Made by a program: the position numbers and the translations under genes
NCBI GenBank assembly: GCA_036925085.1
Contig: JAUPFP010000001.1
Location: 16,338,842 to 16,402,841, forward strand
Length of the DNA: 64,000 nt
Source of the DNA: Brachycybe producta
Taxonomy: Eukaryota; Arthropoda; Diplopoda; Playtdesmida; Andrognathidae
Direction: 5' to 3'
Shown here: piece by piece, positions 18,700-58,839 of the stretch
Position numbering within the stretch: position 1 is the stretch's first letter
Layout of the letters: the number at the start of each line of letters is the position of its first letter
The notes under the pieces: generated by a model
What the model was told of the DNA's origin: nothing
What the model saw: only the letters and a program-made list of their open reading frames with translations
The model's database searches: none

Positions 18700-20560
18700 G
18701 CTGACAAGCTAAAAACAAGCCAGAACTGGACGGTGGTGGTACGGCAACTCCCAACCGTAACCAACTCCCACCAACCGAACCCACGGGTTTGGTACCGCGA
18801 CCACCTGCATAAAGGATGGAGGCATGCCAAGACCAACGTCTCGCATAGACCTACCATCCAGCCACCCCGTCAACACCTGACGGCTGTGGTCTAGCTGGTT
18901 CCCGGCCGACACGGTCTCACTGTGTCGGGACTCCTCTTCATCCGTTCCAACTCTTCTGGCAGTTGTCCCCTGTTACTCCTGACCAGAAGGTCCTGGACCT
19001 CTCTTCTTCACATACTTGGACTTTCTCTTGTCCACTTTTTTTTTCTTTTTATGGTAAGAAGGTTTACCGTGCTTTGAGCCGGACCGGGCTGGTCAGACTT
19101 AGGAGGGTGGTTAGCCTCCTTCGAGTGTCCGGACTTCCCACCCGATGCCTTTTCAGCCGAAGCTGTAATCGCCTCCGAGTTGGCTCCCGTAGCCGACTTG
19201 ACAATTGAGGACGGTCGTGCTGCCACGAAATGCCATCTTTCATTTCGGGGAAGTTACCTTTCTCGGTGCAAGGGTTGGCTGACCCTTGCCACCAACAGTT
19301 TTAGCACCCGCTAACACCGCTAAACACCCGCTAACACCGGCACTCGCAACACGTGCGACACCACATCCGACAGGAGGTTCCCCTGTAACAAGCGGATTCC
19401 GGACTTCAGGGGCGGAAACTGAGAGGTCCGGAGCTCGAACTCCTGTCGGCGTTCAACGTTCAACAGCCTTCCTTATTTGGGCTTCACACTCATAACTCCG
19501 CTCATAACTCCACTTGCCTGCGGGGAAGCCGGCCGGACCTCCTCGTGAGGTCTTAGCCTTTTTCCCCGCTGGATGACTGGCCACTGGTGGGGTGAAAGGG
19601 CAGGGACTTTTCTGTCCCTGACCACCACCACCACTCACTGGAGTGCTCTTCCTCGGGGCAGATACTGAAGGCTGGTTGGCCTTTTTCTCCACTTTTTGGT
19701 TCTTCTTGGGAGTCCCAGACTGCCAGCTTGAACCACCAGCTGCTGTTTCGTGTGAACCCTTAACAGATGGTTGGCTAACAGGCCAGGCAGCCCCTGGGGC
19801 TCCCTCAGGATGAGCAAGGGCCTCAGCCGGAAGGCCTACTGCCGGCATAAGTTTTGCCATGGCAGTTTCTTTCCTCTTAAGCCTAGCCCCTCAGTAAGAG
19901 CCCTCATCCGTGCAGTGTACCTAGCAGCACCGGACTTTTTCTTGGATTTCAATTCGTCTTTTCGGCACTGCTGGTTAGAGAACTCCCTGACGTAGGATCG
20001 TTTCCCATCCGCCATCAGAAAACCTTCCAATAGCGTCTGGTACTTCTGACTTTCGTCTAACCGATCAAGTTGGTCCTCTTCAGCTTTTCCTGAAGGTTTA
20101 ACATCCAGAGGACTCCCTTGAATGGTGGGAGTACCCTCCCGGGATCCGGTCATCGACCATTTTCCTGGGGAGGCCTTTCCTCTCCCTTCAGACTCCAAAG
20201 AGTCCTCTGAAGATAGGATACACGGCCACTCCACTGCCTGGCGATATGCACCACGGAAACCTCTTTTGTGTCCATCCCAGCCTCCGGCTTTCCTCAGCCA
20301 GGCTAGCCAATTCTAGCCGGCTTCGGCACGCCGGAGCTACCAGTTTTCTACTGGAAACCAGCGATCCTGCATTTTTCCGTTTTCTCCAGTGCAACACACG
20401 TTTCAGGTGCGAACTAACGGCAAACAACCATCCTTGTTTAATTTTCCAAACAAGATGGCGCTTCACCACTAATCTCAAAGGAGGAATGGTCAACAGCGGC
20501 GGCATGACGGCTAAACCCTCTTTGCCGCCTCCACCACTGTTTCCTTAGAGATCCTACTGT
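18700..20560 (-). pseudogene. Decayed ORF3 of a gypsy element (copy ii)
   Basis: The middle and N-terminal parts of ORF3 are recognisable on the minus strand. They include basic Lys-rich stretches near 19000-19070, the words KKKSGAARYTARMRALTEG and GGFLMADGKRSYVREF (frame 19836-20234), and acidic Ser-rich sequence. The C-terminal domain present in copies i, iii and iv is missing. Several frameshifts break the frame. The N-terminal end joins the pol remnant near 20560 with a much shorter spacer than in element A. Confidence 0.8.
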
Positions 20561-28620: not shown

Positions 28621-28840
28621 TGTAACGACCCGACTGGGCGCTACAAAGACCCCGGCAAGTTTTCCCCAACTTACCATCGCTGACCTCCGTTGGGACGGGC
28701 CTCAGCGCGGGCCAGCCCTCCTGTCCGTCCGTGAATACGGGTGACGCCGGTTGGAGATCTTCCCCGATGATCGACTGTCGAAAGTCCGCCGAACCGTACG
28801 GAGAATCCACGGTAGACTTGTCGAATCCTACCGTGAATAC
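28621..28840 (-). mobile_element. Element B 3' LTR, left part
   Basis: It begins TGTAACGACCCGACTGGGCG and matches the right LTR of B at 46350-46664. It is interrupted at 28840 by element A and resumes at 41341. The last four bases, ATAC (28837-28840), are repeated at 41337-41340 as the target duplication of element A. Confidence 0.9.
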
Positions 28841-29631
28841 TGTAACGTCCCGCCGGACCGTTACAATACCCCGGCAAGCAATACCCCAAAAACGGCGTAA
28901 AACTTACCGCAACCGGCTCCTTACGGGGACGGGACCGTACCCGTAGCCGTCTCCCACACGGTGCTCCTTGAGTTGTGCCGGCTCCTGGAGCCACCCACGA
29001 CGGACACGACGAGAAACCACGCCGCCACGCCGAGAATATCGCGGTAGAACTCCGGTTCTACCGCGAGCCGACACGAAGACCGGCCGAAACAAGTCGGAAA
29101 GACGGTGGTGTTGATCCCCAAACCGGACAACCCACCCTCCGCGGTACTCCCCCAAAGAAACGACACGGACACACGCAAGTGAAGATAAAAAGTGTATTTA
29201 TTGCACACTTACGAGGATTAAGATGAAACGATGGCAGTAAATAATATTTACACAACTTGGCTGGTCTACTTTGACCAGCCAAGCCCCCATAAATATAAAC
29301 AAAGGCCTAATGGCCAAAGGCACAAAAGAAGATGAGGCACTGGCCAGTGGAGGTCTCCTTGACCTCCACCCACAGGTCTAGTCAGCTTCAAGTCCTACAA
29401 CCAACTGCCCCGATCCTGTGGTTGACTAGGCCACAGGAAACCTCCAGGCAACTCCACCTGGAGGGGACAGAGGTCACTTCTGACCTCTCACCCATAGACT
29501 TCATGGTGAGAGGTCTGCTGGCACCAAAATGGCGTCCGTCCCAACAGCCTACTGTAGCTGTCAGGCAGACCACCATAGGGAAATTCGTCTGCTCCACCAA
29601 AATTAAAATTGGAGCAGACCAGGTTGCCACA
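28841..29631 (-). repeat. Element A 3' LTR
   Basis: A 791-bp LTR, TGTAACGTCC...GGTTGCCACA as read on +. On the minus strand AATAAA (29197-29202) is a likely polyadenylation signal and TATATTTA (about 29290-29300) a possible TATA box. Hairpins include CCTCCAGG/CCTGGAGG (29441-29464) and TTGGCTGGTC/GACCAGCCAA (about 29257-29282). Confidence 0.95.
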
Positions 29632-29708: not shown

Positions 29709-32646
29709 TTAGGGACCGGACGGCTTCTCTGGCGGTGTTGCGAAAGTGGAGCCCATCCACTCCGCAGCCCACCGACGTGCCCACCACAAGCACATCTGGG
29801 TGTTACGCCACCCAAAACCAGTATCAAAAGCTGTCCCCATAAGACGGCTTTCCTCCAGGGCTCGGAATTCCTCAAAAGGAATATCCTGGAGTTGCGGACG
29901 CGTGCGAAGCGTCCGACTTGTTAGGAGGTCTACCAGGGCAACCGCGGGCTCGGTCTCGCACCCTGGTAGAGGCTCAGTGATAAACTGTCCAGCCATACCT
30001 CCTAAGTCGCATCCCAGCAAACGTTGGATGAATGGGGCTGCACGCCGGGCTAGACGAACTATCCCGGCATCTAGTCCCACCACATCCAAAATAGCAAACG
30101 TTTGCTGGACCGGATTTACGACCATAATCACCGGAAAACCTCCACAACCAAACGCCACAACATGGCGCATGTTGTACGGCGGTAGCCTTGCTACCCACGG
30201 TTCTGGAAGTGGCTCATCCAGACGGTAGTAGCCGTGGTATTGGCAACCCTCCATTCCCGGTTGGTCCTGCCAGAGACCAAGCCGGTTATTCAGATACACC
30301 TCTGCATCTGAATACGGGGGCAATGCGCCAATACGCCGTCCCTCAGCCTCAGGCCTAGGGGAGGTTGACGTTTCAGGTCCTAGGGTATCGAATACCCCAC
30401 CGCCATGGACCGGAGAGAAGGATGTACCCCTACTGGGGGTCACGGGGTCACGTTTGGCGGGAACACTAACTCCTGCAACCAAGGTTCCTTCGCCCCTAGG
30501 TGAGGGCAAAGTCACCCGGTGCAGGGTTCCCACCGCTCGAACCCGCAGGCTCGAGACCGCATCCACCTTCGGGGAGGATGGAGGCGTGCCGACCAAAACG
30601 TCGCGCATCGACCTACCATCCGTCCGCGCCGCCTCAACGGGACGGGTATGGACCGGTTGACTCCCGGCCGGCGTGCTTGCCTGAGCACGCCGGGACTCCT
30701 CCTTTTCCGCCACGACGCCTCCAGTTTCGGCTCCCTGGCGCCTACTACTGGAGGGTGTCGGACTTCCCTTCCTCTCACGTCTGGACCTCTTTCGGTCCTT
30801 CTTATTTTTCTTTTTCTTCCCGTGAGAGGAAGGTTGACCATGCGTCGGGTCAGACTTAACTGACCCCGACGACTTACTGGGCCGATCGGGCTTAGGAGGG
30901 TGGTTAGCCCCCTTCGCCCTCTCGGACTCCTTCTTCGAAGGTTTTCCGGCCGGAGCCGTACTCTTCTTTGAAGAAGTGCCCTTAGCCGACGTGACAGCCG
31001 AGGATGACTGTCCGGAGACAAATCTTCCTCGACCATCCCGAAGGAGAGACTTCTCCTTCGGTGCAAGAGTCGGCTGACTCTTGCCACCAGTCGCTTTGGC
31101 TTCCGCACCATGGGCTGGTGCACTGGAAGCCTGCATCACCTCCCTCTCGGCGATTCGCTTCTGGCCAGCGATGGTCGTGGCACTCGCAATCGGCGGGACG
31201 CCACGACCGACAGGAGGTTCCCCTGTTTTGAGCGGACTCCGGGCGGGCATTCCCTGCAGGGGAGGGAACTCCGCAGCCCGGCGCTCAAACTCCTGCCGCT
31301 CTCCTGCACCGACCGCACGAGCGATCTGTCGGTGCAGGCTCGCTGCTTGAGCCTGAAGCCGTTTGAGCTTATCCTCTAAGCTCTCGGGCTTCCGAGGTTC
31401 GGAGGCCTTTCCTCGACCGGAGGACCTGGCCTTCTTGCCTCGAGAGCGTTCAGCCACTGGTGGGGTGTGAGGGCGGGACCTCTTTTGTCCCTTACCACCA
31501 CCACCATTCACAGATTTTCCCATTTTACCGGGAGCAGGTACTGGAGGCTGGGTAGCCTTCTTCTCTGCTCGCCGGTCCCTCTTTGGGTTGTCCGACCGCC
31601 AGCCGGAGGGGCCAGCTACTGCTTCGGGCGAACCCGATCCAGCAGCCGGCTTCTCTGGCCAAGCAGCCCCTGGACAGCCTTCAGGGTGGGCGAGAGTTTC
31701 CGCTCGAAGCCCCACAGCAGGCGTGAACTTCTTCAACGCCTCCTCCTTAGCTTTGAGCAGAGCCTCTCTCTCTGCGAGAGCCTTGGCTCTGGCAGTGATC
31801 CGTGCGGCTCCGGACTTTTTCTTGCGCTTCTTCGCGCCGTCCTTCTTCACCTGCACGGTCGGAAACTCCCCGACGAAGCACCGACGGTCCCCGACCAGGA
31901 AGCCACCTTCCTGGACCATGTCCCGTCTAGCTTCGTCCAACCGATCCAAGCGGTCTTCTTCTTCGGCCAAGGACACAGCCACGGCCTCCAAAGACATTGG
32001 ATCGGCGGGAAGTACTCCGGGGGATCCCGTCCCAGACGGTTTACCCTCGGAGGCCGAACTACTCCCGTCAGACTCCGAAGAGCCCTCTGAAGAGGCGTTG
32101 CGGCTCCGCCACTGCCTTGAGGCGTCCACCACCGAATCAACGGTGGTTTCGACCTCCATCTCCGTGTCAATGACTAAGGACGCTCCCAAAGAGACGTCCT
32201 CACTGTCCTCGACCACCCTAGACCAATCTAGGAGGTCTCGAACAGACGGAGACCCGGGTTCCGGGGTACTAGCGGTTACCACACTGGTAGCCGCCTTCCC
32301 ACCATCAACACCCGCTTCTGCAGCCTCACCAACCGGGGAAACTACCGCCGCCACCGACTGAACGGTGGTAGCAGCCGTATCTCTGGTAGGAGACTGCAGG
32401 TATCTGTCCCAGAAGGCTCCGACACTGGTCGGAGTCGACTGGGCAGATGCCGGACCTTCCACGGCCTCTGCCGCCGGGGAATCACCAGATTCCACGGTGG
32501 CGTCAGCCGTTTCCGGTCCGCCAGATGATGGGGAGCCCTCCGATCCCGACTCCAACAGCCTTGCGTCCCCAGGACGCAGCGGGCTGAGGGAGGGGGACCG
32601 TTGGCCACTCCCGTCGACTTCCTCCTTCTCCTTCTCCGTGATGGGC
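29709..32646 (-). CDS. ORF3 of element A (copy iii), novel accessory protein
   Basis: About 978 codons, open to the stop at 29709. N-terminal third: acidic and Ser-rich, then GGFLVGDRRCFVGEF. Middle: coiled-coil-like AARITARAKALAEREALLKA, a second helix LEDKLKRLQAQAASLHRQIA, long disordered Pro/Ser/Lys runs, and a strongly basic KKKKNKKDRKRSRRERKG that looks like a nuclear-localisation or nucleic-acid-binding signal. C-terminal domain of about 200 residues (29.71-30.32 kb): LNNRLGLWQDQPGM, YQ/CQYHGYYRL, ILDVVGLDAGI, IQRLLGCDLGG, LVDLLTSRTLR, WWARRWAAEWM. I recognise no known family. It is not env: no signal peptide or membrane anchor within it. The likely start is the exon after a splice acceptor at 32647; element B has an ATG (44821) where A has GTC. 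The frame is also continuous with integrase upstream. Confidence 0.75.
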
Positions 32647-32656
32647 CTACGAAAAA
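32647..32656 (-). promoter_or_regulatory. Candidate splice acceptor before ORF3
   Basis: On the minus strand TTGTCCCTTTTTCGTAG|G ends at 32647, a good pyrimidine-tract plus AG. The matching place in element B reads TTTTTTGATCTTTTTCAG|G (AG at 44844-44845), even closer to consensus, although the surrounding bases have diverged. A possible donor GA|GTAAGT lies at 33298-33299 in A; one in the leader is equally possible. A spliced mRNA for ORF3 would parallel env expression in some retroelements. Confidence 0.5.
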
Positions 32657-32659
32657 GGG

Positions 32660-33300
32660 ACAACACCGTTAAAAACAAGTTTTCACCATGGAAAAGTGAA
32701 TTCCACGTACTTTTACCGTGAGAATTCTTGTTTTCACCGTCCAAAGTCGGTAATTCACGGTCAAAACCGTGTTTTACCGTCTTCTTCCGGTGAAAACCAC
32801 TTTTCCCCCTTCCGGAACCGGTAGAAAGAGTATTCCACGGGATTTCACCGTGCGAATCGCGGTTTCCACCGTCCAAAGTCGGTGAACCATGATTAACCAC
32901 CTTCGGACGGTGAAAACACCCTTTCACCGAGTTCCGACGGTTGGAAAGGGCATTGCACGGACTTCTACCGTGCAAAATGCCGTTTTCACCATCCAAAGTC
33001 GGCAATTCACGGTCAAAACCGTGTTTCACCGCCTTCGATCGGTGAAAACCACTCCCTGGCGAGCTTCGACCGTCCAAACACCGTCGAACTTGGGCCTTCC
33101 CAAGCGAAACGGCGCTCGGACGGGCTGAACCCGCCGGAAAAGTGCTTTCCATAGTGGTTTGGCCACCATGACAACAGTCATGGCGGCGAAACCACACCCA
33201 CCACGTGTGTATACGGTCAACGACCGTAAAACACACCGTTAAAACAGAAAAAAGAACTGCCAACAGGCAGGAGAAGGAAATTCCCTTAGAGGGACTTACT
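32660..33300 (-). repeat. Tandem repeat between integrase and ORF3
   Basis: Three diverged units of roughly 125 bp, each containing CCGTCCAAAGTCGG (or CCATCCAAAGTCGG), at about 32738, 32868 and 32990. They are followed by CACGGTCAAAACCGTG-type inverted words and ACCGGTGAAAACCAC. The GGTGAAA/TTTCACC words give the region strong self-complementarity. It remains open in the pol-ORF3 frame. A hydrophobic run in that frame near 33240-33290 is probably incidental. Confidence 0.7.
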
Positions 33301-33599
33301 CTTTTAATTTCGCCCTCTTTTTCCAGTCTTGGCACACGCTTTTGATGGTGAATTTGTGGTTTCTTTAATCCACGTGGTGCCGGCGTTTTTTGTTTGTATA
33401 CGTTGCAAACAATATGGCGCCTAGCCGCCAAATTCACCATCTTAGCGGCCAATGGCCGTGCAGTAGCGGCTAATACGTCATCAGCCGCCTCATGCATGGT
33501 CACCATGGAGATTTCACCGTCGTCTGCCTTTTTAGGGGCAGATACACGGTGAATTCTCCTACACCAAGACTGTAACTGGTGGGTAGAGACATTTACCGT

Positions 33600-35832
33600 C
33601 AATTCTCTTATATTGACGGTAATGGGAGGCTTCACGGAGGTTTTCACGGGCGGATTTCTCCGTCCACGGACCGATTTTGTCGGGCCTTTGGCTGGACACC
33701 TGGGGATGGGCCGCCCTGGGTTTCTACCGAAACCGTAGCTGGCCCCAAACACCGCAATGTCCGGCCGCCTCCTCTCCCAGCCGTCCGCCCACAGTAGCGG
33801 ACTGCCGGCTCTACCCCACCACGGTAGGGGCACCCACAGGGTACCCCACAACCGGATACTCCCTATCCGAGGGTCGTACCCACTCACCTCAAACACCCTC
33901 GGTCTCCGCGGACGGAGATTATACCGAGGAGGTGGGGGGTCATCTCCCTCGGAGTCGGTAGACTCCTGCGAAGAAATGGACGGTGGCTTTGGCGCCGGAG
34001 TCACTCTACTCCGCGCCGAAGCCTCCGTGGCATCGCTGTCTGTACCGGAGGAGGTGTCAGAGACACCAAGTCCATCTTCCTCTCTCACGGTGCAGGTGGG
34101 TATATACGGCTTCAGGTTATCTACATGAAACCGGTCGCGCACCTTCCGACCATACCCGTCTACGAATTCTATCTCGTAGACTAGGTCAGAATACCGTGCG
34201 ACCACCGTACCCCTCTCAGCTTTATACGCCAAGTTCCATTTCTTCGCCTGGCCGAGTTTCCCAGCCTGATCTCTTATCCACACCGGATCCCCCGGCTGGT
34301 AAAGAGGAGGCTGCACACGGCCAGCGTCATACCGTTCCTTTTGCCTTTTCTGAGCAGCCGCCAAACGTTGACGAGCCTGCTCCTCCACGGCTTGCTGGTC
34401 GGGCAAGTCGCGGACTGGACCGCTCGGAAGGAGATTATCAATCTCCATCCGGGGCTCACGGCCAAACAACAACTGATACGGAGAGACTTGCGTACTCTCC
34501 TGGACAGCTGTGTTATAAGCCCACACGGCGGGCCGTAATTTGTCCCACCAATCACGCTGTTCCTTGAGGGGATCAAGGTACCGCTTGATGGTTTCCATTA
34601 CGGTTTTGTTCGTACGCTCCGTAAGCCCATTAGCTTGCGGATGGTACGCCGTCGTGAAGTGATGCGCTATACTATAGCGCTCCCGGAACTTCAGCAGGAC
34701 TTTGCTGGAGAACTGGGACCCACGATCCGAGACAAGAGCTTTCGGTGTGCCATACACCGAAAGGATCTCGTCCTTCAGAAATTTCACCACACAGGCGGCC
34801 GTGGCCCTTCGTACCGCCCTTGCCACACCGTACCGGGTGAAATAGTCAACCATGATTAGAACATAGGTGACTCCACCCACGGAGGCAGGAAACGGTCCAA
34901 CGAAGTCCATTCCCCAGGTATCAACTGGGTACTCCGGCACAATCGGTTGGAGAAATCCCTGACTTCGAGCGAACTGTCGCGCTCTCTGACACACCAAACA
35001 TGACTTAACATATTCGGCAGTGTCCCGCTTCATACCGATCCAGTAGAAGCGTGAGCGCAGTCTCTGGTAGGTCTTAAACATCCCGAAGTGACCAGCTTCG
35101 GGAATGTCATGTAGCTTCCTTAGACAGAAAGCCCTGCATGACTTCGGAACTACCAACACAGTTCTCAACCGATCCTGGATGGACCTGATAGCAAACAACA
35201 AGTCATCTGCCACCACGAACTTGAACCGGAGGTTCGAGTTGGGGTCACGGAAGATTTCACTCTTCACTTTGGAGCACCAGCCATCGGCCTCTTGCTCCTT
35301 GACCCAATCCACCTCGGAACGGACGTGGTAAATAACCTCACCTACATCGGCTTCGACGTATTCAGGTAAGGAAAGGTCCGCCACATCACGAACAGGATAC
35401 CGACTCAAAGCGTCGGCATCCACGTGCAGTGTTCCCTTCCTATACTGAACCTTAAACCGGTACTCTTGGAGCTGCATCTGCCAACGCCCCAACCTGCCTT
35501 GCAGGTTCTTGGCTGTCTGCAGATAGCAAAGAGCATGGTGATCTGTGACGATCACAAACTCCCGGTTAAAGAGGTAAGGACGGAATTTACCCACGGCAAA
35601 CATGACCGCCAAGCACTCCTGCTCGGTGACCGAATACCGTGTTTCCGCTCCTTTCATGAGTCGGCTTGCGTAGGCCAGAACACGGGGGACACTGTCCTCC
35701 GGTAACTTCTGGTAGACTACGACTCCCAAGCCGTACCCACTAGCGTCGGTATTTATAATTACCTCACCACGCGGATCGTACATGGTGAGTACCGGCGCTT
35801 CGGTTAAAAATGCCTTTAACCGCGCAAACGCT
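33600..35832 (-). CDS. pol: Element A pol, RNase H and integrase part
   Basis: Continuous minus-strand frame (numbered from the first MYDPRGE at 35783). RNase H: TDAS at residue 13, TEQE at 53-56, TDHH at 80-83, HVDADALSR at 120-128. Integrase: zinc motif H225, H232, C262, C265; catalytic D293 (GMDFVGPF), D353 (SDRGSQF), E389 (GLTER); GPY-like C-terminal module with LVYEIEFVDGYGR and RFHVDNLKPY near 540-575. It then has a basic tail with YNLRPRRPR. This cuts and joins the cDNA into the genome. Its frame is shifted relative to the upstream RT part by a deletion, and no stop separates it from ORF3, so the true C-terminus is uncertain (about 33.6 kb is an estimate). Confidence 0.9.
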
Positions 35833-38131
35833 AGTTTGCACTGATCCGACCACTGTCGGTCACTGTCGTCGGGACATCAAACTCCTGGACTGCCCGCACG
35901 AGATCCGGGTCCGGAGCAACTCCCTCGGCACTTACTACGTGACCGAGATAACGTACTTTGTTAAAGCCAAAGAAACATTTCTTCGGCTGGAGTTTCAGCT
36001 CCGCCCCTCGTAACAGTCCAAGGACAGTGGAGAGTCTCTCGAGAAACTGCTCGAAAGTGTTCCCAAAGACGATAATATCGTCCAGGTACACCAGACAAGT
36101 CTCCCACTTATGTCCTGCCAATAAGAGGTCTAGCGCTCTTTGCATGGTGGCTGGAGCATTACAGAGTCCGAAAGGCATTTTCCGGAACTCAAACAGACCT
36201 TGAGAGCAAATGAATGCCGTTTTCTCAATGTCTGGCTCAGCCATCCGAACCTGCCAGTAACCACTAGCCAGGTCCAAGGTAGCGAAGAACTTCGCACCGG
36301 CCAACGAGTCGAGCGCATCATCGATGCGAGGCAACGGATACTGATCCAGCTTTGTCTGGGCATTCAGTTTCCGGTAGTCCACGCAAAAACGAAAGCCACC
36401 ATCCTTCTTGCGGACAAGCAAGATAGGGCTCGCGTAAGGACTACGCGAAGGTTGGATAACCCCTGCATCCAACATCTTCGCCACCTCTTCTTTCTCGACT
36501 GCTCTGGCCGCTGGCGCGGTTCGACGCAGTCCTTCACGCACCGGAGGTTGCCCACCGGTATCGATCGTATGTTCGACCAGAGAGGTTTCACCCAACTCTG
36601 TGAAGTCGAACGCGAAATGATCCCGGCGTGCCAGCAGGAACTCTCGAAGCCGTCTCGCCTCTTCAGGCTTCAGATTGTCACCAATCTTAAGACATTCTTC
36701 GAGGGTGGGAGCCGTCGCCACATTGAGCACTTGGCGTCCGTTTCCGGACGCCCCTCTCAACTTAGACGAGGACTTCCCTGGTCGAACTGTCCTCTGAGTG
36801 GGGTCTCCCCCTCTCAACTTAGACGGCTCTTCCAGCCCTACCACAATGGCAGCCTCCACAGCTTGAGCCGTGGCTCCTGTTTCCAGGGCAATGGGTGCCT
36901 CTCCCACGTTCTCAAGCCAGATATCATACGTGCCAAGCTGGTTAGCTGCAGCGATACCTGCCACCGCTAACACACCACGTCCACCTAAGGCTTTCCGGTG
37001 CGGCTCCACGAGAAGCAGCTGGCCAGGGCCGGCATGCTCCACCAACGTCACGGATACGACACGTCGTACGTGGGCTGGTAGCCAGACATTCTCCCTCAGT
37101 CGCAGAGAACAAACTTCTCCGCGCCCGATAGAGGTTCTGGTCTCGGGCAGCTCTGGTGAAACAACGTTCACCCACCCGTCAACCCGCTCGAGTGCAGGCG
37201 GATCCACTGGGAGTTGCCGTCCCTGAGGCAAAGCCTCTGGTATCGGCGATGGAATTGCTTCCACCTCCCTAGGTTCTGCAAGCGCACGATCGGTGAATGC
37301 AGCTTGGAGGGCGTCTGGATGTGCAGTCCAGACATCCTCCCGGAAGTAAACCTTCCGGTGCACGATATCAACCATCAAGCCGAAACGTGAGGCGTGATCA
37401 ACGCCCAACAACGCTTCGCCCTCTCCTTTCACCAAAAGGAGAGGCACCTTGATGGTTTTCTTGTGGATGGTCAATTCCACATTTGTGACCCCTACTACCT
37501 CGATGGAGTGCCCACCCATTCCAAGAAGGAATGAAGGAACCGCCAGTTCCTCTATAGGCAACTCCATCACTCGTGCCGCCGTAATGCTTAGGACCGACAC
37601 GTCGGCCCCGGTGTCTACGATCATCTCCATCAGACAATCGCCTATCGACACCCACACCCTCGGTGAACCTACGTCGTAGGCCCGGCTCTGAAGCTCAGGG
37701 ATGGGAACCCGCGGGCTCCCACCATCGATCTTCTGCCTCCCGTCCACCTTACCGTCCACACCGGACGGTAATCCCAGACGTGCAGAAGACTGGGGCTCAG
37801 TCTCACAAACCAGAGACTCCCCAGGCATCACGGGAGGTATGGGCGCACCAACTCCTCCCGCCTGCTCGATGAGCGCACGATCCAGCACCTCACCACTAGG
37901 CATATAGGGTGAGGGGGCAAACCAGCGATCCAGCTGGCTGCACACGGCCTCCAATGTGGAGCATGGCGATGGAAATACCCACTGGGTAATTTCCGGGTCC
38001 GCAGACCTCGCCAGAGGCACCCCTGCCTTCCGCAGGACATCCACATATTTGGAGACCGCCCGGAGGTACGTCCCTCGTCCAGAGCTCAGGCCGTGACAGG
38101 CACCTGAGCTTTGAAGCTTTACCGGTCGCAC
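35831..38131 (-). pseudogene. pol: Element A pol, protease and RT part (frame-disrupted 3' end)
   Basis: 766 codons. Aspartic protease with DTGADVS at residues 173-179 and flap/ILG-like LLGVDHASRFG. A linker with GLEEPSKLRGGDPT. RT with VIQPSRSPYASP, FCVDYRKLN, FATLDLASGYWQV, FRKMPFGLCNAP and the catalytic YLDD at 682-685, then KVRYLGHVVSAEG. After TTVT (near 35860) the family sequence breaks: the end of the RT thumb/connection is absent and a shifted frame ends at a stop at 35831. Downstream WSDQ sequence resumes in another frame. The first codon is GTG, so translation probably enters by -1 frameshift from gag rather than by a start codon. Confidence 0.92.
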
Positions 38132-38167
38132 ACCACTCAGTTCGGTGGCGACCGGCGGCGGTTTAAC
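38122..38167 (-). promoter_or_regulatory. Probable -1 ribosomal frameshift signal, gag to pol
   Basis: On the minus strand the heptamer G TTA AAC (38167-38161, codon phase of gag as shown) lies 22 bases before the gag TGA (38139-38137). The arterivirus EAV uses the same heptamer. After a 5-base spacer (CGCCG) a hairpin begins: CCGGTCGC (38155-38148) pairs exactly with GCGACCGG (38129-38122), extended by CACC/GGTG with one bulged base. The gag stop lies in the loop. Pol is in the -1 frame relative to gag and has no ATG at its start. Spacing and structure match known -1 signals. Confidence 0.75.
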
Positions 38168-39912
38168 GAGGATCTCTCCTCGTCCTCCACGAGTCGATAG
38201 TAGAACTGGCCATCGTGAACGGTGGCCAGGTACTTACGACCCTCCAGCCAAACTGGTGCAACACCAGCGGTTGACTGGAGGCTCTGACTTTCGTCAGGCA
38301 CCACTCTAGCAACTTGCCCTTTGGCCGCAGCCTTCGGGCAATCCTTCCTCAGGTGACCCATTTGGTTACACCCGAAACAAGGACCTAGTCGCCGGAGCGA
38401 ATCTCCCGTACGGTCCGTACCACGAGGCGTTGCCGCCGGCTGACCTCCACCAGAGCCTGCCTGCTTCTTCTTCTTGCCTCCGGTCTTGGCTCCTGCTTTG
38501 TCCGACTTGGACGGTGCAGCAGCCTTCGCACCCGTTTGGCTCGAAGATGAAGCCTTGGCAGAGCTCCCAGAGCTAGCCGTGGTTCCGGAGGACGGAGCGT
38601 TAGCCCGGTCCTGGGGAACCCCTCTGGTACGAGTAGGTAATTTACCTACAAGAAGCAAATCGGCCTCTACCAGCCGTGCCTTTCGGGCATATGCCTCCAC
38701 CGTACCGGCCTTACAACCGATCAACTGATCAGTGATGGCCGTCTGGAGTTTCCGTTTGAAGCGAATGAGCCGACAGCTCTCGTCTTCGCCCGGAGACACT
38801 CGGTCGGACAGTTCCAAGAACCGCCAGTAGAATGCCTGAACAGACTCGGTAGCCCCCTGTTTCATGGACTCAAATTCACCGAAACAGAGGCGAGCCTGAT
38901 TGCTAGTGCTGAAGCGGCTACGCATAGCATCCTTCAGCTCCGTCCAGGTCAGGTCCGGAAGAGTTTCCACCAACGTGGCGTAGTACTCTTCCGCCGGACC
39001 GTCCAGCAGAAACGTGATGAAACTGCATCGGGACTCGTCCGTCCAGCGCTGAGCTCGGGCTTTCGCTTCGAACTTGCGGAGAAAAGGCGTCAAGTCCTCT
39101 CTGCCGTCGTAACGAGCAAAAGAGTGGACCGGGTTAAAGAACCCGAACGCCTGAACCTCCGCTGGAACCGCTGGAGCGGGCGTCCAAGCAGCAGCGCTAA
39201 CCCTGCGAGGTTGCCTGCTCCGGTTCCCCGAAACGTCAGACTCCGACTCAGCTTCCGAGGGAATCTTCATCTGAACCCTCGGCTGCTGTCCGGGTACAGC
39301 AGGAGCTCCCCGGCCAAGTCCCCGAGGAGACGGCCTGGGTGCCACCCGCGGAGGTACCAACCGGGGAAGTACCGGTGGTTCCTCTCCCCGTGCGCCTTCA
39401 CGCACGGGCGACAGTGAGAACCGAGGTGCCACCCTCGGCTCAACCGACGACCGGGACAGTCGTCCTTCCAACCGAAGGACATCTATCCCGTAAGCAATCT
39501 CAACGAGTTGCTGCTCGGATAGCCCGGCCAAAAAGGCCCGGCCCTCACGAGCAGTCTCGTCCGGGATTTCCACCATGTCCCTACGGGGCAAATCGCCACG
39601 TCCAACCGGACGGGCGACGGTGGAAACTTGGACAAGCGGCCGTGGCTGCTCGTCCTCCCCGGTGAGATCACCGTCGGACCCACTGTCTTCAACCAGGTAT
39701 TCTCCCGGACGGACGTCACGGCGGCGTTTCCGCACCGTGACCCAGTCCTCCGGGAGATCCCCGCCTACGCTACCGCTATGCTCCTCTCTCACCAGAGGCG
39801 CACCGCCTTCCGCCCCCCCAAGGGGACGGTCGACTACGCGGCCGCGTAACTCCAAACCCGCATCGACTCCAAGTTCCCGACCTCCCGTCGGTACTTTTGG
39901 GGCTGACTCCAT
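38137..39912 (-). CDS. gag: Element A gag
   Basis: 591 codons from an ATG at 39912. N-terminal region basic and acidic mixed, without a matrix-type signal. The retrotransposon gag core (about residues 250-430) includes FNPVHSFARYDGREDL, FLRKFEAKARAQRW, FLLDGPAEEYYATL and FRxRFSTSNQ-like sequence. A Ser/Ala/Lys-rich linker follows. One zinc knuckle C-X2-C-X4-H-X4-C at C512, C515, H520 and C525. It forms the capsid particle and packages RNA. The stop lies inside the frameshift hairpin. The frame is intact. Confidence 0.93.
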   Translation of the reverse strand: MESAPKVPTGGRELGVDAGLELRGRVVDRPLGGAEGGAPLVREEHSGSVGGDLPEDWVTVRKRRRDVRPGEYLVEDSGSDGDLTGEDEQPRPLVQVSTVARPVGRGDLPRRDMVEIPDETAREGRAFLAGLSEQQLVEIAYGIDVLRLEGRLSRSSVEPRVAPRFSLSPVREGARGEEPPVLPRLVPPRVAPRPSPRGLGRGAPAVPGQQPRVQMKIPSEAESESDVSGNRSRQPRRVSAAAWTPAPAVPAEVQAFGFFNPVHSFARYDGREDLTPFLRKFEAKARAQRWTDESRCSFITFLLDGPAEEYYATLVETLPDLTWTELKDAMRSRFSTSNQARLCFGEFESMKQGATESVQAFYWRFLELSDRVSPGEDESCRLIRFKRKLQTAITDQLIGCKAGTVEAYARKARLVEADLLLVGKLPTRTRGVPQDRANAPSSGTTASSGSSAKASSSSQTGAKAAAPSKSDKAGAKTGGKKKKQAGSGGGQPAATPRGTDRTGDSLRRLGPCFGCNQMGHLRKDCPKAAAKGQVARVVPDESQSLQSTAGVAPVWLEGRKYLATVHDGQFYYRLVEDEERSSLNRRRSPPN

Positions 39913-40522
39913 TTTTCACCGTAAACGAACGGTAAAATCTGGACAAAGCCACCAGATCTCGGGTTTCCACCGTCGAAAACGGTAAAATCACGGACAAAAG
40001 TCCGTAAAATACCGTACCGAACGGATGGAACCGTGCGAAACCGCGGTATCACGGACAAAAGTCCGTGTCCCACGGTAAAGTACGGTCAGAGTTTGCCTTT
40101 ACCGGTTTCTACCGCGGTATAACGGACAAAAGTCCGTCTCTCGCGGTGTACTCCACGGTAAATGCCCTTTTACCACTTTCTACCGTGGACCAACGGACAA
40201 AAGTCCGTACACCACGGTGTACTTGCGGTAAAATACCGTAAACCACCGAAAACCACGGTACCACGGACCGTAGTCCGTGCCCCACGGCAATTCGACGGTA
40301 AAAATACGGTTACCGACGGTAAATTTACCGTAAACCACGGTACAACGGACCAGAGTCCGTTCCCCACGGTAAACAACGGTAAATCAACGGTGAAACGGTG
40401 GTTTCCGCCGCTGTCCCACGGACCAAAGTCCGCGCCCAGTGACGTACTCTCACCGCACGGTGATTCGACCGACTTAACGGTCGAACTCACGGTAAATCAC
40501 CGTGCGAGAGGCGGGGTACAGG
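39913..40522 (-). other. Element A leader with seven regularly spaced hairpins
   Basis: Between PBS and gag ATG the leader holds ACGGAC-N4-GTCCGT inverted repeats at 39990-40005, 40051-40066, 40122-40137, 40193-40208, 40263-40278, 40345-40360 and 40418-40433 (last with GTCCGC). Spacing is 61, 71, 71, 70, 82 and 73 bp. Loops vary (AAAA four times, CGTA, CAGA, CAAA on +) while stems do not. ACGGTAAA and TACCGT words fill the spacers. Relatives have the same arrays. Candidate roles are RNA packaging or dimerisation, or internal ribosome entry; none is shown. Confidence 0.85.
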
Positions 40523-40540
40523 TACCCGGCGCCTCCACCA
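40523..40540 (-). promoter_or_regulatory. Primer binding site of element A
   Basis: Two bases inside the 5' LTR the minus strand reads TGGTGGAGGCGCCGGGTA. TGG matches a tRNA CCA end, so the primer tRNA should end ...GCCTCCACCA. The same TGGTGGAGGC begins the PBS of element B (about 46331-46347). I could not match this end to a particular tRNA with confidence. Confidence 0.7.
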
Positions 40541-40542
40541 AT

Positions 40543-41336
40543 TGTAACGTCCCGCCGGACCGTTACAATACCCCGGCAAGCAATACCCCAAAAACGGCGT
40601 AAAACTTACCGCAACCGGCTCCTTACGGGGACGGGACCGTACCCGTAGCCGTCTCCCACACGGTGCTCCTTGAGTTGTGCCGGCTCCTGGAGCCACCCAC
40701 GACGGACACGACGAGAAACCACGCCGCCACGCCGAGAATATCGCGGTAGAACTCCGGTTCTACCGCGAGCCGACACGAAGACCGGCCGAAACAAGTCGGA
40801 AAGACGGTGGTGTTGATCCCCAAACCGGACAACCCACCCTCCGCGGTACTCCCCCGAAGAAACGACACGGACACACGCAAGTGAAGATAAAAAGTGTATT
40901 TATTGCACACTTACGAGGATTAAGATGAAACGATGGCAGTAAATAATATTTACACAACTTGGCTGGTCTACTTTGACCAGCCAAGCCCCCATAAATATAA
41001 ACAAAGGCCTAATGGCCAAAGGCACAAAAGAAGAAGATGAGGCACTGGCCAGTGGAGTTCTCCTTGACCTCCACCCACAGGTCTAGTCAGCTTCAAGTCC
41101 TACAACCAACTGCCCCGATCCTGTGGTTGACTAGGCCACAGGAAACCTCCAGGCAACTCCACCTGGAGGGGACAGAGGTCACTTCTGACCTCTCACCCAT
41201 AGACTTCATGGTGAGAGGTCTGCTGGCACCAAAATGGCGTCCGTCCCAACAGCCTACTGTAGCTGTCAGGCAGACCACCATAGGGAAATTCGTCTGCTCC
41301 ACCAAAATTAAAATTGGAGCAGACCAGGTTGCCACA
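40543..41336 (-). repeat. Element A 5' LTR
   Basis: A 794-bp LTR. Compared by eye with 28841-29631 it shows A/G and G/T substitutions (near 40856 and 41058) and an extra GAA near 41033. The same minus-strand AATAAA and hairpins are present. It is followed on + by the ATAC duplication and the rest of the element B LTR. Confidence 0.95.
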
Positions 41337-41340
41337 ATAC

Positions 41341-41924: not shown

Positions 41925-44843
41925 ATCCTCTCAACTTCGCTGATCTGCCCCGGGATCAGGTCAATCGAGCCAGTAAGGATTGCGCCTGCGACCCCCACTC
42001 AGTTTCAGTCCGAGTACTCCGGTAGTGGATTTAACGGAGCTACCATCCACTCCGCCATCCACCGACGTGTCCACCACGAACACATCCAGGTGTTTCGCCA
42101 CCCGAGTCCGGGATCAAACTCGGTCCCCCTGAGTCTTGCCATCTCTTGCTGCCGAAATTCATCGATAGCGAGGGTGTCAAGTTGCGGACTCTGATGTAGA
42201 GTCCGACTTGTCAGAAGGTCTACGAGGGTGGCCGCGGGATCGGACACGCTTCCTCGTATTGGGTGGTTTACCAATTCTCCCACCATTCCTTCCAAGTTGC
42301 AGCCAAGGAGACGCCGGATGTATGGGCCCACGATCTGGGCTATACTGACTAATCCAGCTCCTGTTCCCACAACATCCAAAACGGCATAGCACCTCCTTAC
42401 TGGGTTGATGACCAGCAACACCGGATAGTCTGTACTGCCATATGCCAGCACATAGCACATGGCAAATGACGGCAACGACGGTGCCCAACGGGCTAGGAGT
42501 GGCTCTTCCAGACGATAATACCCCTGGTATTGGTAATCCTCCATTCCCGGCTGGTCCTGCCACAGACCAAGCCGGTTATTCAGAAAGACCGCTCCTTCTG
42601 AATACGGAGGCTCCGCACCAAAGCGTCGACCCTCGCCCTCGGGCACGGGAGACCTGGCTCTTTCTTCTGGTCTTAGGGCCGCAAAAACCCCATCATCGGG
42701 ACCCAGAGAGAAGGGTGTCCTTTCACTGGAAGGCACGGGACCACGTTTGGCGGGAACACTACTTTTCCCCGCCGGGCTGCCCCCACCGCTAGGTAACGGT
42801 GAGCTGACCTGGTGGAGAGTTCCCACCGACTGAACTGACAAGGTTGGTACCACCACCACCTTTGAGGAGGATAAAGGTATACCGTGAACAACATCTCGCA
42901 TTGACCTATCATCAGTCCGTGCTGTCTTGCTATGACAGGTATGGTGTGGTTGGCTCCCGGCCGACACGGTCGCGCTGTGTCGGGACTCCTCCTCTTCCGT
43001 CCTGATACTTCCACCACCACCAGTCTCCTGGGACCCACGGGTGGAAGTCTTTGGACCTCCCTTCTTCTCATGACGGGCCTTCTTGCCCTTTGTCTTCTTT
43101 TTCTTCTGAGAAGAAGGTTGACCGGGCTGTGAGCTGGACGCACCTAAGCTCACAGACTTACCGGGCCGGTCAGTCTTAGAAGAGTGGTTAGCCCTCTTCG
43201 ATTGACCGGACTTGCTAGCCGCAGACTTTCCAGTCGAAGCTGTACTAGTCTTTGAACTAGCTCCCGTAGCCGAACCGACGGTCAAGAACGCACGTGTCGC
43301 CACGAAGCATCCCTTTCCATCCCGGGGACGATTTCTCTTTTCCGGGGCAAGGGTCGGCTGACCCTTGCCACCAACAGGTTTAACTGCCGCACCTTCGTGA
43401 GGTGCCTTGGCAGCTTGTACCGCCCCTTTGAGCGATACACTGTTGGCCAGCGGCCGTAGTGGCACTCGGAATTGGAGTGGCACCAACTCCGACGGGAGGT
43501 TCCCCTGTTCTGAGCGGATCCCGGGCATCAGCTTCCCGCAGGGGCGGAAACTGAGAGGCCTGGAGCTCAAACTCCAGCTGGCGTGCGGCCTTCTTGTCCC
43601 GCAGAACAAGGGCAGCACATCTGGCCGCTTGTGCCTGGTGGTACCGCAAGCGGTCCTCCTGGCTCCACTTTCCCTTGGGGAAGCCAGCCGGACCTCCACG
43701 AGAGGTTTTGGCTTTCTTCCCCACCGGATTACTGGCCACTGGTGGGGTGAAGGGGCGGGGATGTTTCTGTCCGCTCTTCGGTCTCTCTTGGGAGTAGCAG
43801 ACTGCCAACCGAAGGACCAGCCACTGTCGCGGGCGAACCCATGACAAGTGGTTGACCGACAGGCCAGGCAGCACCTGCGACTCCCTCAGGATGAGCTGGG
43901 GACACAGGGAGAAGACCCACCACCGGCGTAAACTTCGCCAAGGCAGCTTTCGTCCTGTCCAACTGTGCCTCTCTCCGCCAGAGCCTTTATCCTGGCGGTG
44001 TACCGAGCAGCTCCGGACTTCTTGGTTTTTGAACCGTCCTTTCTGAACTGCTGGGTAGAGTGTTCTCCAACGAAGTAATGTTTTCCATCCGACATCAGGA
44101 AACCACCTGACGCCGTTTGGTACTGCGCGGCTTCGTCATGCCTTTCTAGACAGGCTGCTTTCGTCTCCCCAACAGGGTCGACTGGAATTAGACTGCCCTT
44201 CCGGGCTGGAGTACCCTCCTGGGATCCGGTCACTGACCGTTTACCCAGGGAGCCCGATCCTCTTCCTTCAGACTCCGAAGAGTCCTCTGAAGAGAGGATC
44301 TGTTGGCCTCGCCACCGCCTGGAGAAGGGCACCACATTGTCTTCGGTGGTGTCCATCTCTGCCTCCGTGTCGATGACAAGGGTTCCTCCCAAGGAGGCAT
44401 CCCTGCTTCCCTCAGCCAGGCTAGCCAATTCTAGCCGGCCTTGGTCCAACGGAGTCCCACACTTCGTCAGGGAGGTAGCCGCCAAACCGGTGGCCACCTC
44501 TCGGATGGGCGTGCTCGCCCGCACCGGCTCACCAACCGCCGGGATCTCCATGGCTCCCAACTTAATAGTCGCCTACGGAGATCCCACGGTGGAAGGCGGT
44601 GTCAACCATCTCCAAACGGACCCATAATACAGAGGGGTCCGAGGGGACGGCTGGGTCACCACAGCATCCTCAACCAATAGCAGACCTAAAGGTCCGCCGT
44701 CGGCCAAGTCTGCTATGGCTCAATCCAAAGAGTCCGGGGAGCAAGCGGCATCCGACTCCAACAGCTCCGCATCACCCGGATGCAAAGAGCTGAGGGAGGA
44801 GTAACCGCTGTCCCCCGCCATTGTCCTTCTCCGCCGTGGCTAC
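41925..44843 (-). pseudogene. ORF3 of element B (copy iv), largely preserved
   Basis: The frame 42005-43699 (564 codons) and the frame 43886-44560 are in the same phase, separated by a stretch (43.70-43.89 kb) where indels shift the frame. ATG at 44821-44819 begins MAGDSGYSSLSSLHPGDAEL, which aligns with the start region of ORF3 in A. Landmarks in order: VIDTEAEMDTTED, GGFLMSDGKHYFVGEH, KKSGAARYTARIKALAE, Lys-rich KKKKTKGKKARHEKKG, then the C-terminal domain with LNNRLGLWQDQPGM, YQYQGYYRL, VLDVVGTGAGL, IRRLLGCNLEG, LVDLLTSRTLH, WWTRRWMAEWM. A splice-acceptor-like site precedes it at 44844. Gag and pol are absent from element B, so ORF3 is its only gene. Confidence 0.85.
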
Positions 44844-44849
44844 CTGAAA

Positions 44850-45370
44850 AAGATCAAAAAACACCGTAAGAATTTGACATATTACGGTAGGAAACAATTT
44901 CCACGGACCAAAACCATGAAAAATTGTTTTCCGGCCGGGCAGGCACCGTGGTACACGGCCAAAGCCATCCCAGCGGTATCCGCACGGTCGGAATCAGCCA
45001 AAAACGGTCCAAAACCCGTAATTTCCCATTCGGTACCTTGGGCGGTGATTTCCACATTACACCACCGTAGGAAATCCCGTTTCCACCGTGCATATCCCGT
45101 GACCTAAGGAAAAAACCGTCTCTCATGGGATCCGCACGATCGGAATCGGCCAAACACGTGTTTGGACCGTACAAATCCGGTACCGTACATTCAGGCTGCT
45201 TGGGGAGTGGTTTACACGGACTTCTACCATGAAAAACCACTTTCCGTCCGTTAGAACACCATGGACTACGGTCGAAACCGTTCTCCACGGTGGTTTCACG
45301 GACAGAACCGTGCAAAAACACCCTTTCAGCGTCCAAACTCTGTAGAACTTGGTCTCCACCAAGTTGCACC
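44850..45370 (-). repeat. Element B counterpart of the pre-ORF3 repeat
   Basis: GC-rich sequence with recurrent CACGG/CCGTG inverted words and CGGTCGGAATCGGCC-like repeats (about 44984 and 45150), equivalent to 32660-33300 of element A. The minus-strand frame across it is open by chance and carries no ORF3 similarity. Confidence 0.6.
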
Positions 45371-45663
45371 GGCACTTCACTGTCCTGTGTCCGGCATGTG
45401 TCTCGTCGTGTCGGCCGGAGCTTCGCGTGCGGTTCCACGGTAAGATCTATCGGGGATTTACCGTGGATTCCTCGTCCTGTTCGGCGGTCTTTCGTCCGTC
45501 GACTTGCGGCGAGGGAAGGGACCTCCAACCGGCGCTACCCGTGGCACGGACGGGTACAAGAGGAGGGCTGGCCAGCGCTTCGACCCGTCCCAAGGAGGTT
45601 AGGCGACGGTAAGTTGATTAAAATTTACCGTTGGCATTGTAACGGCCCAGCCGGATTGTTACA
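45371..45663 (+). mobile_element. Inverted LTR fragment inside element B
   Basis: Read on the minus strand from 45663, the piece begins TGTAACAATCCGGCTGGGCC and follows the U5-side sequence of family LTRs (CTCCTTGGGACGGGTCGAAG, GCAAGTCGACGGACG, as in 1518-2358), relative to which the copy is in inverted orientation once placed in B. It ends near 45371 without the U3 half. It shows that B is a rearranged composite. Confidence 0.6.
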
Positions 45664-58835: not shown

Positions 58836-58839
58836 GGGC

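What the first reader, a model, noticed from the sequence alone, without database searches (positions are those of the whole stretch)
29709..32646. A long, unrecognised ORF3 in the env position of a Ty3/gypsy family, present in at least seven copies or fragments
Seen: ORF3 lies between integrase and the 3' LTR in element A and recurs at 14.0-16.7, 18.7-20.6, 41.9-44.8 and 56.7-58.8 kb (minus) and 28.4-28.6 and 52.6-53.2 kb (plus). Conserved blocks include GGFLMADGKRYFVGEF-like, KKSGAARYTARxKALAE and a C-terminal domain with LNNRLGLWQDQPGM, HGYYRL, RLLGC and LVDLLTSR. Known: extra genes here in gypsy elements are usually env-like. Inference: with no signal peptide, no membrane anchor, coiled coils and very basic Lys/Arg runs, this is more likely a nuclear or RNA-binding accessory protein.
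Basis: partly seen in the sequence, partly recalled or inferred. Interest (0 to 1): 0.88.

Follow-up and report, generated by a model that had tools for sequence, protein, structure and literature searches.

The report
Pol-fused orphan in structured retrotransposon RNA
The supposed separate third gene of this mobile element is really a long, unrecognised tail of its Pol protein, and it is written in RNA that computation predicts to be folded far beyond chance, with matched mutations keeping the folds; both are unusual for this kind of element.

Summary
The sequence is real, but the frame is misread. 'ORF3' is not a separate ORF: in element A it is the last 979 codons of one open frame that starts in RNase H/integrase, and other copies have single frames of about 2,430-2,920 codons reaching the ORF3 end. 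Three sub-families keep it. Its C-terminal ~200 residues are under purifying selection (omega 0.21-0.33 between sub-families). No relative was found in Pfam, NCBIfam, PDB sequences, a capped search of about 5.8 billion proteins, IMG/VR or GTDB contigs. Unexpected result: the element's RNA is predicted to be exceptionally structured, most of all in linker, ORF3 and leader. Coding parts fold 19-33% more stably than synonymous-codon shuffles; an unrelated Ty3 family of the same genome and T7/T3 genes do not. Pairs are kept by compensatory change between sub-families (A to B: 132 of 207 doubly changed pairs still pair, 85.7 expected; T7/T3 at chance). The likeliest role, inferred and not shown: a Pol-delivered protein that handles this RNA. 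Whether selection or a copying process made the structure is open, because strand preference is weak. Two claimed plus-strand copies were not found.

The parts
28841..29631 (-). 3' LTR of element A (791 bp, TG...CA); target duplication ATAC at 28837-28840
40543..41336 (-). 5' LTR of element A (794 bp); second ATAC at 41337-41340
39913..40542 (-). leader with 7 hairpins of the form ACGGAC-N4-GTCCGT at 39990-40433 (6 of 7 exact, 61-82 nt apart); mean MFE z -5.2 and -5.7 in two runs of 3 windows
38137..39915 (-). gag (Retrotrans_gag, CCHC knuckle)
35831..38233 (-). pol part 1: aspartic protease and reverse transcriptase; in this copy the frame is broken against part 2 near 35.85 kb, uninterrupted copies exist
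33888..35876 (-). pol part 2: RNase H, H2C2 zinc finger, integrase core and the pol end (..RYNLRPRRPRVFE)
32649..33887 (-). linker, 413 codons open in the pol frame: conserved block 33405-33548 (RVSAP..ISMVT..LAARRHIVC) and hydrophobic segment 33219-33275; most structured coding part (33.1% below synonymous shuffles)
32647..32648 (-). 3' splice-site-like sequence (TTGTCCCTTTTTCGTAG) at the ORF3 border; a similar one lies there in sub-family B; use not shown
29712..32648 (-). 'ORF3': C-terminal 979 codons of the pol frame: acidic N part (pI 4.1), basic middle (pI 10.9), C part with fewer basic residues (pI 5.1)
31707..31907 (-). conserved module GGFL..FVGEF..KKSGAAR.TAR.KALAERE..FTPAVGL (omega 0.12-0.35 over residues 1301-1400, between sub-families)
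29712..30332 (-). orphan C-terminal domain (207 codons; LNNRLGLWQDQPGM, HGYYRL, RLLGC, LVDLLTSR); omega 0.21-0.33 between sub-families
42017..45004 (-). copy B of ORF3 (broken frames; 67.5% aa identity to sub-family B copy L075); its leader-like hairpins at 45484-46196
18742..20355 (-). copy E of ORF3 (nearest to type T, degenerate; C-terminal domain not found)
14133..16327 (-). copy C of ORF3 (about 44% aa identity to A in the C domain)
56842..58839 (-). copy D of ORF3 (degenerate, in pieces)

Best explanation
Shown by computation: ORF3 is a long C-terminal extension of the Pol polyprotein of a highly amplified, recently active Ty3/gypsy lineage, kept in one frame with integrase in at least three sub-families, with an orphan C-terminal domain under purifying selection. 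Shown by computation: the RNA of the same element, linker and ORF3 above all, is predicted to fold far beyond chance, and pairs are kept by compensatory change between sub-families. Inferred: the extension enters particles as part of (Gag-)Pol, is perhaps cut off by the protease, and its basic middle with the C-terminal domain binds and handles the structured genomic RNA (packaging, compaction or nuclear transit), doing for this element what CERV does for Cer1 or Rev-type proteins for retroviruses. The structured RNA would be its substrate and might also shield the transcript from host silencing.
For: One frame: 2,055 codons in the window copy; frames of at least 2,800 codons around the C-domain match in 9 of 150 rows and 16 of 150 rows, and of 2,433-2,584 codons in 6 further rows, which I call type T (two of the six, L076 and L077, were compared over their fetched ORF3). 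Integrase-core matches report frames of the same lengths on the same contigs a few kb away. Linker has 0 stops in 413 codons in frame, 10-26 in the other five. Omega of the C domain 0.33, 0.25, 0.23, 0.26, 0.21 in the five comparisons between sub-families; 29 of 29 young copies give a pooled ratio of 0.10, 0.17 over distinct variants (biased, these copies were ranked by protein similarity). RNA: MFE below synonymous shuffles by 20.0% (gag), 19.4% (PR-RT), 23.5% (RH-IN), 33.1% (linker), 25.8% (ORF3), 25.1% (B ORF3), 20.5% (T linker and ORF3); controls: unrelated Ty3 family L098 -7.1% (5 windows, less stable than its shuffles), T7 0.3%, T3 0.8%. Doubly changed pairs that still pair exceed expectation in 10 of 10 directions in ORF3 (z 3.7-6.6) and 2 of 2 in RH-IN (z 5.15, 2.18); T7/T3 z 0.04 and -0.34. 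Degenerate copies are less structured (E pol z -2.1, C ORF3 z -1.35, against -3.2 to -5.7 for parts of A). Basic middle, pI 10.9.
Against: No RNA-binding domain was recognised and no structure could be predicted. Binding, location, protease cutting and expression are untested. Between sub-families the N part of ORF3 has omega 0.55-1.02, so part of the extension is weakly constrained. Strand preference is weak: sense and antisense mean z are about equal, antisense folds also show compensation, weaker than sense in 7 of 10 directions and as strong or stronger in 3, and GU-making changes exceed expectation only weakly (440 against 403.9; five of six directions positive, not independent). In the linker the compensation test is weak (z 2.18 and -0.25; antisense 2.19 and 1.82). 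The unrelated control family L098 is AT-rich (GC 0.36 against 0.54), so it is not a composition-matched control.
Confidence: 0.42

Rival explanations
1. ORF3 is (also) made from a spliced subgenomic RNA as a free nuclear accessory protein, like CERV of Cer1, and the fusion to Pol is secondary.
For: The second-best 3' splice-site score between 41336 and 32401 lies exactly at the ORF3 border in A (32647), and a strong-looking one lies at the same place in B. CERV precedent (PMC10309623; abstract and sections 6, 9, 15 read).
Against: Exon phase differs between A and B and no such site is seen by eye in T L077 (my readings); the first in-frame ATG after the site in A is about 490 nt on and no shared start was seen (alignment). 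Donor 33887 and acceptor 33966, the best scores, are not conserved. The frame through the linker is kept open in three sub-families, which a spliced product alone would not need. Splice scores used matrices recalled by me.
Confidence: 0.2
2. The pervasive hairpins arise from a copying process (reverse-transcriptase strand switching or palindrome correction during replication), not from selection on RNA.
For: Pairing excess is nearly strand-symmetric; short perfect palindromes are also in excess in host stretches (z 1.6-6.1 in five stretches); compensation also appears on the antisense strand.
Against: An unrelated Ty3 family of the same genome lacks it (one 1.2-kb stretch, AT-rich); pairs are conserved across sub-families rather than made anew; weak excess of GU-making changes in the sense strand.
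Confidence: 0.25
3. The extension is an env substitute: the hydrophobic linker segment anchors a membrane or fusogenic protein for cell-to-cell spread.
For: Segment with Kyte-Doolittle 1.9-2.6 and aromatic/basic flank in 4 of 4 loci measured (window, L005, L006, L007), also read in L002; L001, L003, L004 and L008 were not looked at. sORF2/FAST-like proteins in insect LTR elements (PMC11952523, passages read).
Against: T L077 has no such segment (best 1.34) although T frames are uninterrupted in several copies; the segment sits in the middle of the Pol frame. Pyrimidine-rich tracts can read as hydrophobic residues. Signal peptide not tested; the linker of B was not fetched.
Confidence: 0.08
4. 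The C domain is a degenerate Ulp1/C48-like peptidase fold (catalytic His and Cys lost).
For: By eye, the hairpin ..YPVLLVVNPVRRCYAVLDVVG.. matches the spacing of the Ulp1 HW..D hairpin (for the Ulp1 letters); hhalign picked that hairpin, without significance.
Against: hhalign probability 0.1%, score 11.7; ten of 60 column-shuffled decoys score 14.3-17.8. A PF02902 search of the genome listed 12 matches, none at a place in the (capped) ORF3 lists. Foldseek on the poor model: no match at E <= 0.001, an Ulp1-like chain at rank 37 with E 4.8.
Confidence: 0.03
5. The protein is unimportant; only the RNA structure of this region matters and the open frame is a by-product.
For: RNA constraint looks strong; omega of the N part is near 1 in two of five comparisons.
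Against: C domain and the 1301-1400 module have omega 0.12-0.35 with dS 0.5-3.1; RNA pairing constrains synonymous sites too, which would raise omega rather than lower it.
Confidence: 0.04

Closest known systems
CERV of Cer1 (C. elegans Ty3/gypsy), PMC10309623 (abstract, sections 6, 9, 15 read)
   Same: Extra protein of a Ty3/gypsy element, no obvious homology outside its own group, candidate NLS, domains joined by flexible linkers; needed for genomic RNA export (shown there)
   Different: CERV is 517 aa, from a spliced mRNA whose exons 1-3 share the gag frame; here about 980-1,390 aa fused in frame behind integrase, splicing unproven; no sequence comparison with CERV was made
Retand and other plant elements with extra ORFs between pol and 3' LTR, PMC11963269 and PMC7264820 (abstracts read)
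   Same: Long pol-to-3'LTR region, recently active copies, unknown function
   Different: Retand ORFs are antisense (TRP28); here sense and fused to Pol; plants
Genome-scale ordered RNA structure (GORS) of RNA viruses, PMC7642675 (passages read)
   Same: Structure throughout the coding genome measured as folding-energy difference; ours 19-33%, there 15% for SARS-CoV-2, 7.5-10.7% for HCV, 23.4% the highest
   Different: Different shuffles and fragment steps, so the numbers are not strictly comparable; coronavirus pairings were rarely homologous between relatives, here pairs are conserved by compensation; here a retrotransposon
Yeast Ty3 genomic RNA (SHAPE-MaP), PMC11381356 (abstract and passages read)
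   Same: Ty3/gypsy RNA with a well-folded core and short 5' palindromes tied to dimerisation
   Different: The words covariation, z-score, shuffl and synonymous do not occur in its main text; a Pol extension was not looked for
sORF2/FAST-like proteins of insect LTR elements, PMC11952523 (passages read)
   Same: Single hydrophobic segment with basic flank in a Ty3/gypsy element
   Different: 63-107 aa separate small ORFs with a myristoylation motif, mostly upstream of gag

Membership tests
Ty3/gypsy (Metaviridae) LTR element | order PR-RT-RH-IN, gag with zinc knuckle, LTRs TG..CA, 4-6 bp TSD | tested here: met
   no RT tree was built
env-carrying errantivirus-type element | env-like domain or homology | tested here: not met
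env-carrying errantivirus-type element | separate third ORF between pol and 3' LTR | tested here: not met
   one open frame with integrase
env-carrying errantivirus-type element | membrane-spanning segment | tested here: inconclusive
   none in ORF3, one in the type A linker, none in T L077
env-carrying errantivirus-type element | signal peptide | not tested
   no predictor run
CERV-like RNA export factor | spliced mRNA | tested here: inconclusive
   acceptor-like site in A and B, no conserved donor
CERV-like RNA export factor | required for genomic RNA export, nuclear location | not testable with these tools
   needs experiments
Peptidase C48/Ulp1 | profile similarity and His/Asp/Cys triad | tested here: not met
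   His and Cys absent at the positions aligned by eye
GORS | folding energy well below composition- and codon-matched shuffles throughout the coding genome | tested here: met
   controls
GORS | physical evidence of pairing in the cell | not testable with these tools
   needs chemical probing

The most novel reading that the evidence does not exclude
An LTR retrotransposon lineage whose whole RNA genome is under selection for pervasive, specific secondary structure kept by compensatory evolution in protein-coding sequence, with a Pol-fused orphan protein that co-evolved as the chaperone or carrier of that RNA. It would be the first retrotransposon with genome-scale ordered RNA structure that I know of; the searches (listings and starts of abstracts seen) showed no such report.
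Probability: 0.25. Interest if true: 0.88.

Novelty: new variant of a known kind. Interest (0 to 1): 0.68.

Why it matters
Pol is usually held to end soon after integrase (recall); here one lineage carries about 1,390 further residues, kept in several sub-families of one genome, with no relative found. The RNA result turns an annotation puzzle into a testable one: with many copies of different ages, this element could be a model in which to ask why some RNA genomes are folded end to end (packaging a long genome, protection from silencing or decay).

Tried and rejected
Protein searches: ORF3 C part, residues 1300-2055 of P0001, and a five-row alignment of ORF3 against about 5.8 billion proteins: 1,482, 7,985 and 7,991 candidates (the last two lists cut to those sharing most words), none at E <= 0.001. 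IMG/VR with the C domain (71 stretches) and with the RH-IN part (3), GTDB contigs with ORF3 (44): no relative. PDB: best chance matches E 0.25 and 0.33. PHROGs was not searched (one search failed and was not redone) and PADLOC was not tried. Two AlphaFold2 jobs failed in quality, so the Foldseek list is not used. Ulp1/C48 idea: not supported. Splicing at the pol end: the best donor (33887) and best acceptor (33966) are lost or weak in relatives, so coding sequence explains them. Slippery heptamer in the gag/pol overlap: none of the plain type found. 18S search not answered. The host's mitochondrial COX1 is open only with TGA read as an amino acid; that it reads arthropod-like is recall, no call.

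Limits: copies were chosen by protein score, which biases the within-family ratio. Sub-families are represented by few sequences (A, B L075 and the window's copy B, T L076/L077, L005). L093 was fetched but left out of alignment A2 for an inner stop; A2 holds 6 of the fetched type A copies (L012, L015, L018, L020, L023, L092) besides the window's. The ten directions are not independent; the pairing test uses MFE folds of 300-nt windows. Host stretches may hold old repeats. The stretch 59-64 kb (z -0.6) is not an unrelated control: pieces of its RT are 52-80% identical to that of A. L098 is 1.2 kb of AT-rich DNA whose integrase is 25% identical to A's. The mitochondrial/nuclear COX1 control had too few changes.
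Full report
The window is 64 kb of a 295.3-Mb, 442-contig genome. The mitochondrial contig encodes COX1 with TGA codons inside the frame; to my eye it is arthropod-like, but that is recall.

Anatomy. Element A lies on the minus strand between LTRs at 28841-29631 and 40543-41336, which differ by 2 mismatches and 3 gap columns and are flanked by ATAC on both sides: a young insertion. It carries gag (Retrotrans_gag, CCHC), an aspartic protease, RT, RNase H, H2C2 and integrase. The finding's ORF3 is the end of the same open frame as RNase H and integrase: 2,055 codons without a stop. The frame of this copy is broken against the RT part near 35.85 kb; uninterrupted copies exist. In 9 of 150 rows (type A query) and 16 of 150 rows (type B query) the frame around the C-domain match has at least 2,800 codons; 6 further rows have 2,433-2,584 codons and belong to a shorter type that I call T. 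The counts are mine from those tables; the tool scores only the 150 best of 1,500 and 1,421 candidates. That these frames hold integrase rests on their length and, whose integrase-core matches report frames of the same lengths on the same contigs. The 413-codon linker between the pol end and ORF3 has no stop in frame and 10-26 in each other frame, so it is translated or was until recently.

Copies. ORF3 matches were found at five places in the window, all on the minus strand. The plus-strand pieces claimed at 28.4-28.6 and 52.6-53.2 kb gave nothing at E <= 0.01.

Selection. Between sub-families A, B and T (five comparisons) the C-terminal domain has omega 0.21-0.33, residues 1301-1400 0.12-0.35, residues 1401-1600 0.41-0.61, residues 1601-1840 0.47-0.78, and the acidic N part 0.55-1.02 (Nei-Gojobori counts). 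The two T copies against each other give 0.51 for the C domain. Against three broken loci (L002, L005, L006) RH-IN gives 0.13-0.16 and the linker 0.52-0.68, with a conserved block and a hydrophobic segment inside the linker. Among 29 of 29 fetched type A copies (L010-L038) the pooled ratio in the C domain is 0.10, and 0.17 over distinct variants, a biased but consistent figure. The finding's refutation test, dN/dS near 1, is therefore not met for the C domain; the N part comes close to it.

Identity. No family or homolog was found: Pfam (sub-threshold only, EAD9 E 0.094, SWC7 in 2 of 27 rows at best E 0.27), NCBIfam (one match at E 0.16 to a permease model), PDB sequences, protein collection, IMG/VR, GTDB contigs. 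Structure models have mean pLDDT 40-41 and are not used. A resemblance to the Ulp1 fold seen by eye did not survive comparison with decoys.

Structured RNA. Looking for cis-signals I found a hairpin array in the leader: ACGGAC-N4-GTCCGT occurs 31 times in the window with up to 2 mismatches, 1.46 expected; 28 of the 31 lie in four leader-like regions, seven in each, and 14 of the 31 are exact. The excess of short hairpins is not confined to the leader. In 200-nt windows the element's RNA is more stable than dinucleotide shuffles by a mean z of -2.9 to -3.1 (gag, PR-RT, RH-IN), -3.9 (ORF3), -4.6 (LTR), -5.2 (leader) and -5.9 (linker), with -0.3 to -1.9 in five host stretches; a second run gave similar values, 0.03 for another host stretch and 0.17 for an unrelated Ty3 family, L098. 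Against shuffles that keep protein and codon usage, in 348-nt windows, the difference is 20.0% for gag, 19.4% for PR-RT, 23.5% for RH-IN, 33.1% for the linker, 25.8% for ORF3, 25.1% for ORF3 of B and 20.5% for linker plus ORF3 of T; L098 gives -7.1%, T7 and T3 gene 1 0.3 and 0.8%. L098 is AT-rich and its integrase is 25% identical to that of A. Degenerate copies of the same lineage are less structured: E pol -2.1, C ORF3 -1.35; the stretch 59-64 kb, with RT pieces 52-80% identical to A, is at -0.6.

Compensation. For pairs in the MFE folds of one sub-family whose both sides differ in another, 58-69% still pair over ten directions, against 41-43% expected from the substitution spectrum at changed sites: A to B 132 of 207 (85.7 expected, z 6.6), and z 3.7-6.6 in all 10 directions. 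This test is conditioned on change and so does not depend on uneven rates along the sequence. The window's copy B against A: 129 of 215 (88.9) and 121 of 203 (85.5); against L075: 18 of 25 (12.4) and 12 of 20 (9.5). RH-IN against L005: 31 of 36 (15.9) and 27 of 48 (19.7); pol against window copy E: 56 of 104 (42.5) and 57 of 104 (45.5); linker against L005: 30 of 50 (22.3) and 21 of 53 (21.9), the latter no signal (all). T7 against T3: 27 of 70 (26.8) and 21 of 54 (22.2). RNAalifold on six C-domain sequences shows 33 of 204 pairs with a kept double change and a small covariation term, -2.27 of -220 kcal/mol. Strand preference is weak: antisense folds show compensation too, weaker than sense in 7 of 10 directions, mean z differs little, and GU-making one-sided changes in Watson-Crick pairs number 440 against 403.9 expected over six non-independent comparisons, five of six positive. 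Selection on RNA and a palindrome-making copying process therefore both remain possible; conservation of the pairs and their absence in the one unrelated family tested favour selection in my judgement.

Mechanism. The committed reading is a Pol-delivered RNA-handling protein acting on a densely folded genomic RNA. The fused frame, selection on the C domain and the predicted, compensated RNA folds are computational results; delivery in particles, proteolytic release, RNA binding and the step served are inferred. CERV of Cer1 is the nearest worked example of an extra Ty3/gypsy protein that handles genomic RNA (PMC10309623; abstract and sections 6, 9, 15 read), but CERV is spliced and partly in the gag frame. 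A 3' splice-site-like sequence at the ORF3 border in A and B leaves a spliced product possible, though phase, start codon and type T speak against it. An env-like or fusogen role is disfavoured: the only strongly hydrophobic segment seen lies in the linker of type A and not in T L077.

Verdict. Observation partly confirmed; interpretation partly supported; a new variant of a known kind, with an RNA property that I have not seen described for an LTR retrotransposon in the searches (search listings). Of seven papers opened, one was read in sections (PMC10309623), three in passages (PMC11381356, also its abstract; PMC7642675; PMC11952523) and three as abstract and outline (PMC11963269, PMC12440569, PMC7264820).

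Noticed in passing
39990-40433, 23909-24622, 25958-26665, 45484-46196: Seven 16-nt hairpins ACGGAC-N4-GTCCGT (up to 2 mismatches) in each of four leader-like regions; loops vary more than stems. Candidate packaging or dimerisation signals.
   Followed up: partly
33219-33275 (linker of element A): Hydrophobic segment FSCLLAVLFSVLTVCFTVV followed by aromatic and basic residues, also in L002, L005, L006, L007, absent in T L077.
   Followed up: partly
33405-33548 (linker of element A): Block RVSAP..ADDG.ISMVT..EAA.DVLAA..LAA.RH.VC conserved between A and L005 in an otherwise diverged linker.
   Followed up: no
61706-61846: 45-bp tandem repeat, 3.1 copies, in another pol-bearing stretch at 60-63 kb related to A; that stretch shows no marked excess of RNA structure.
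   Followed up: partly
2-706: 13-bp AT-rich tandem array, 54 copies.
   Followed up: no
G000:C1:12697416-12698753, G000:C17:4028172-4029047: Copies of mitochondrial COX1 on large contigs; the C17 piece differs from the mitochondrial contig by about 2%.
   Followed up: partly
11752-11994: TG/CA-rich 22- and 30-bp tandem repeats.
   Followed up: no
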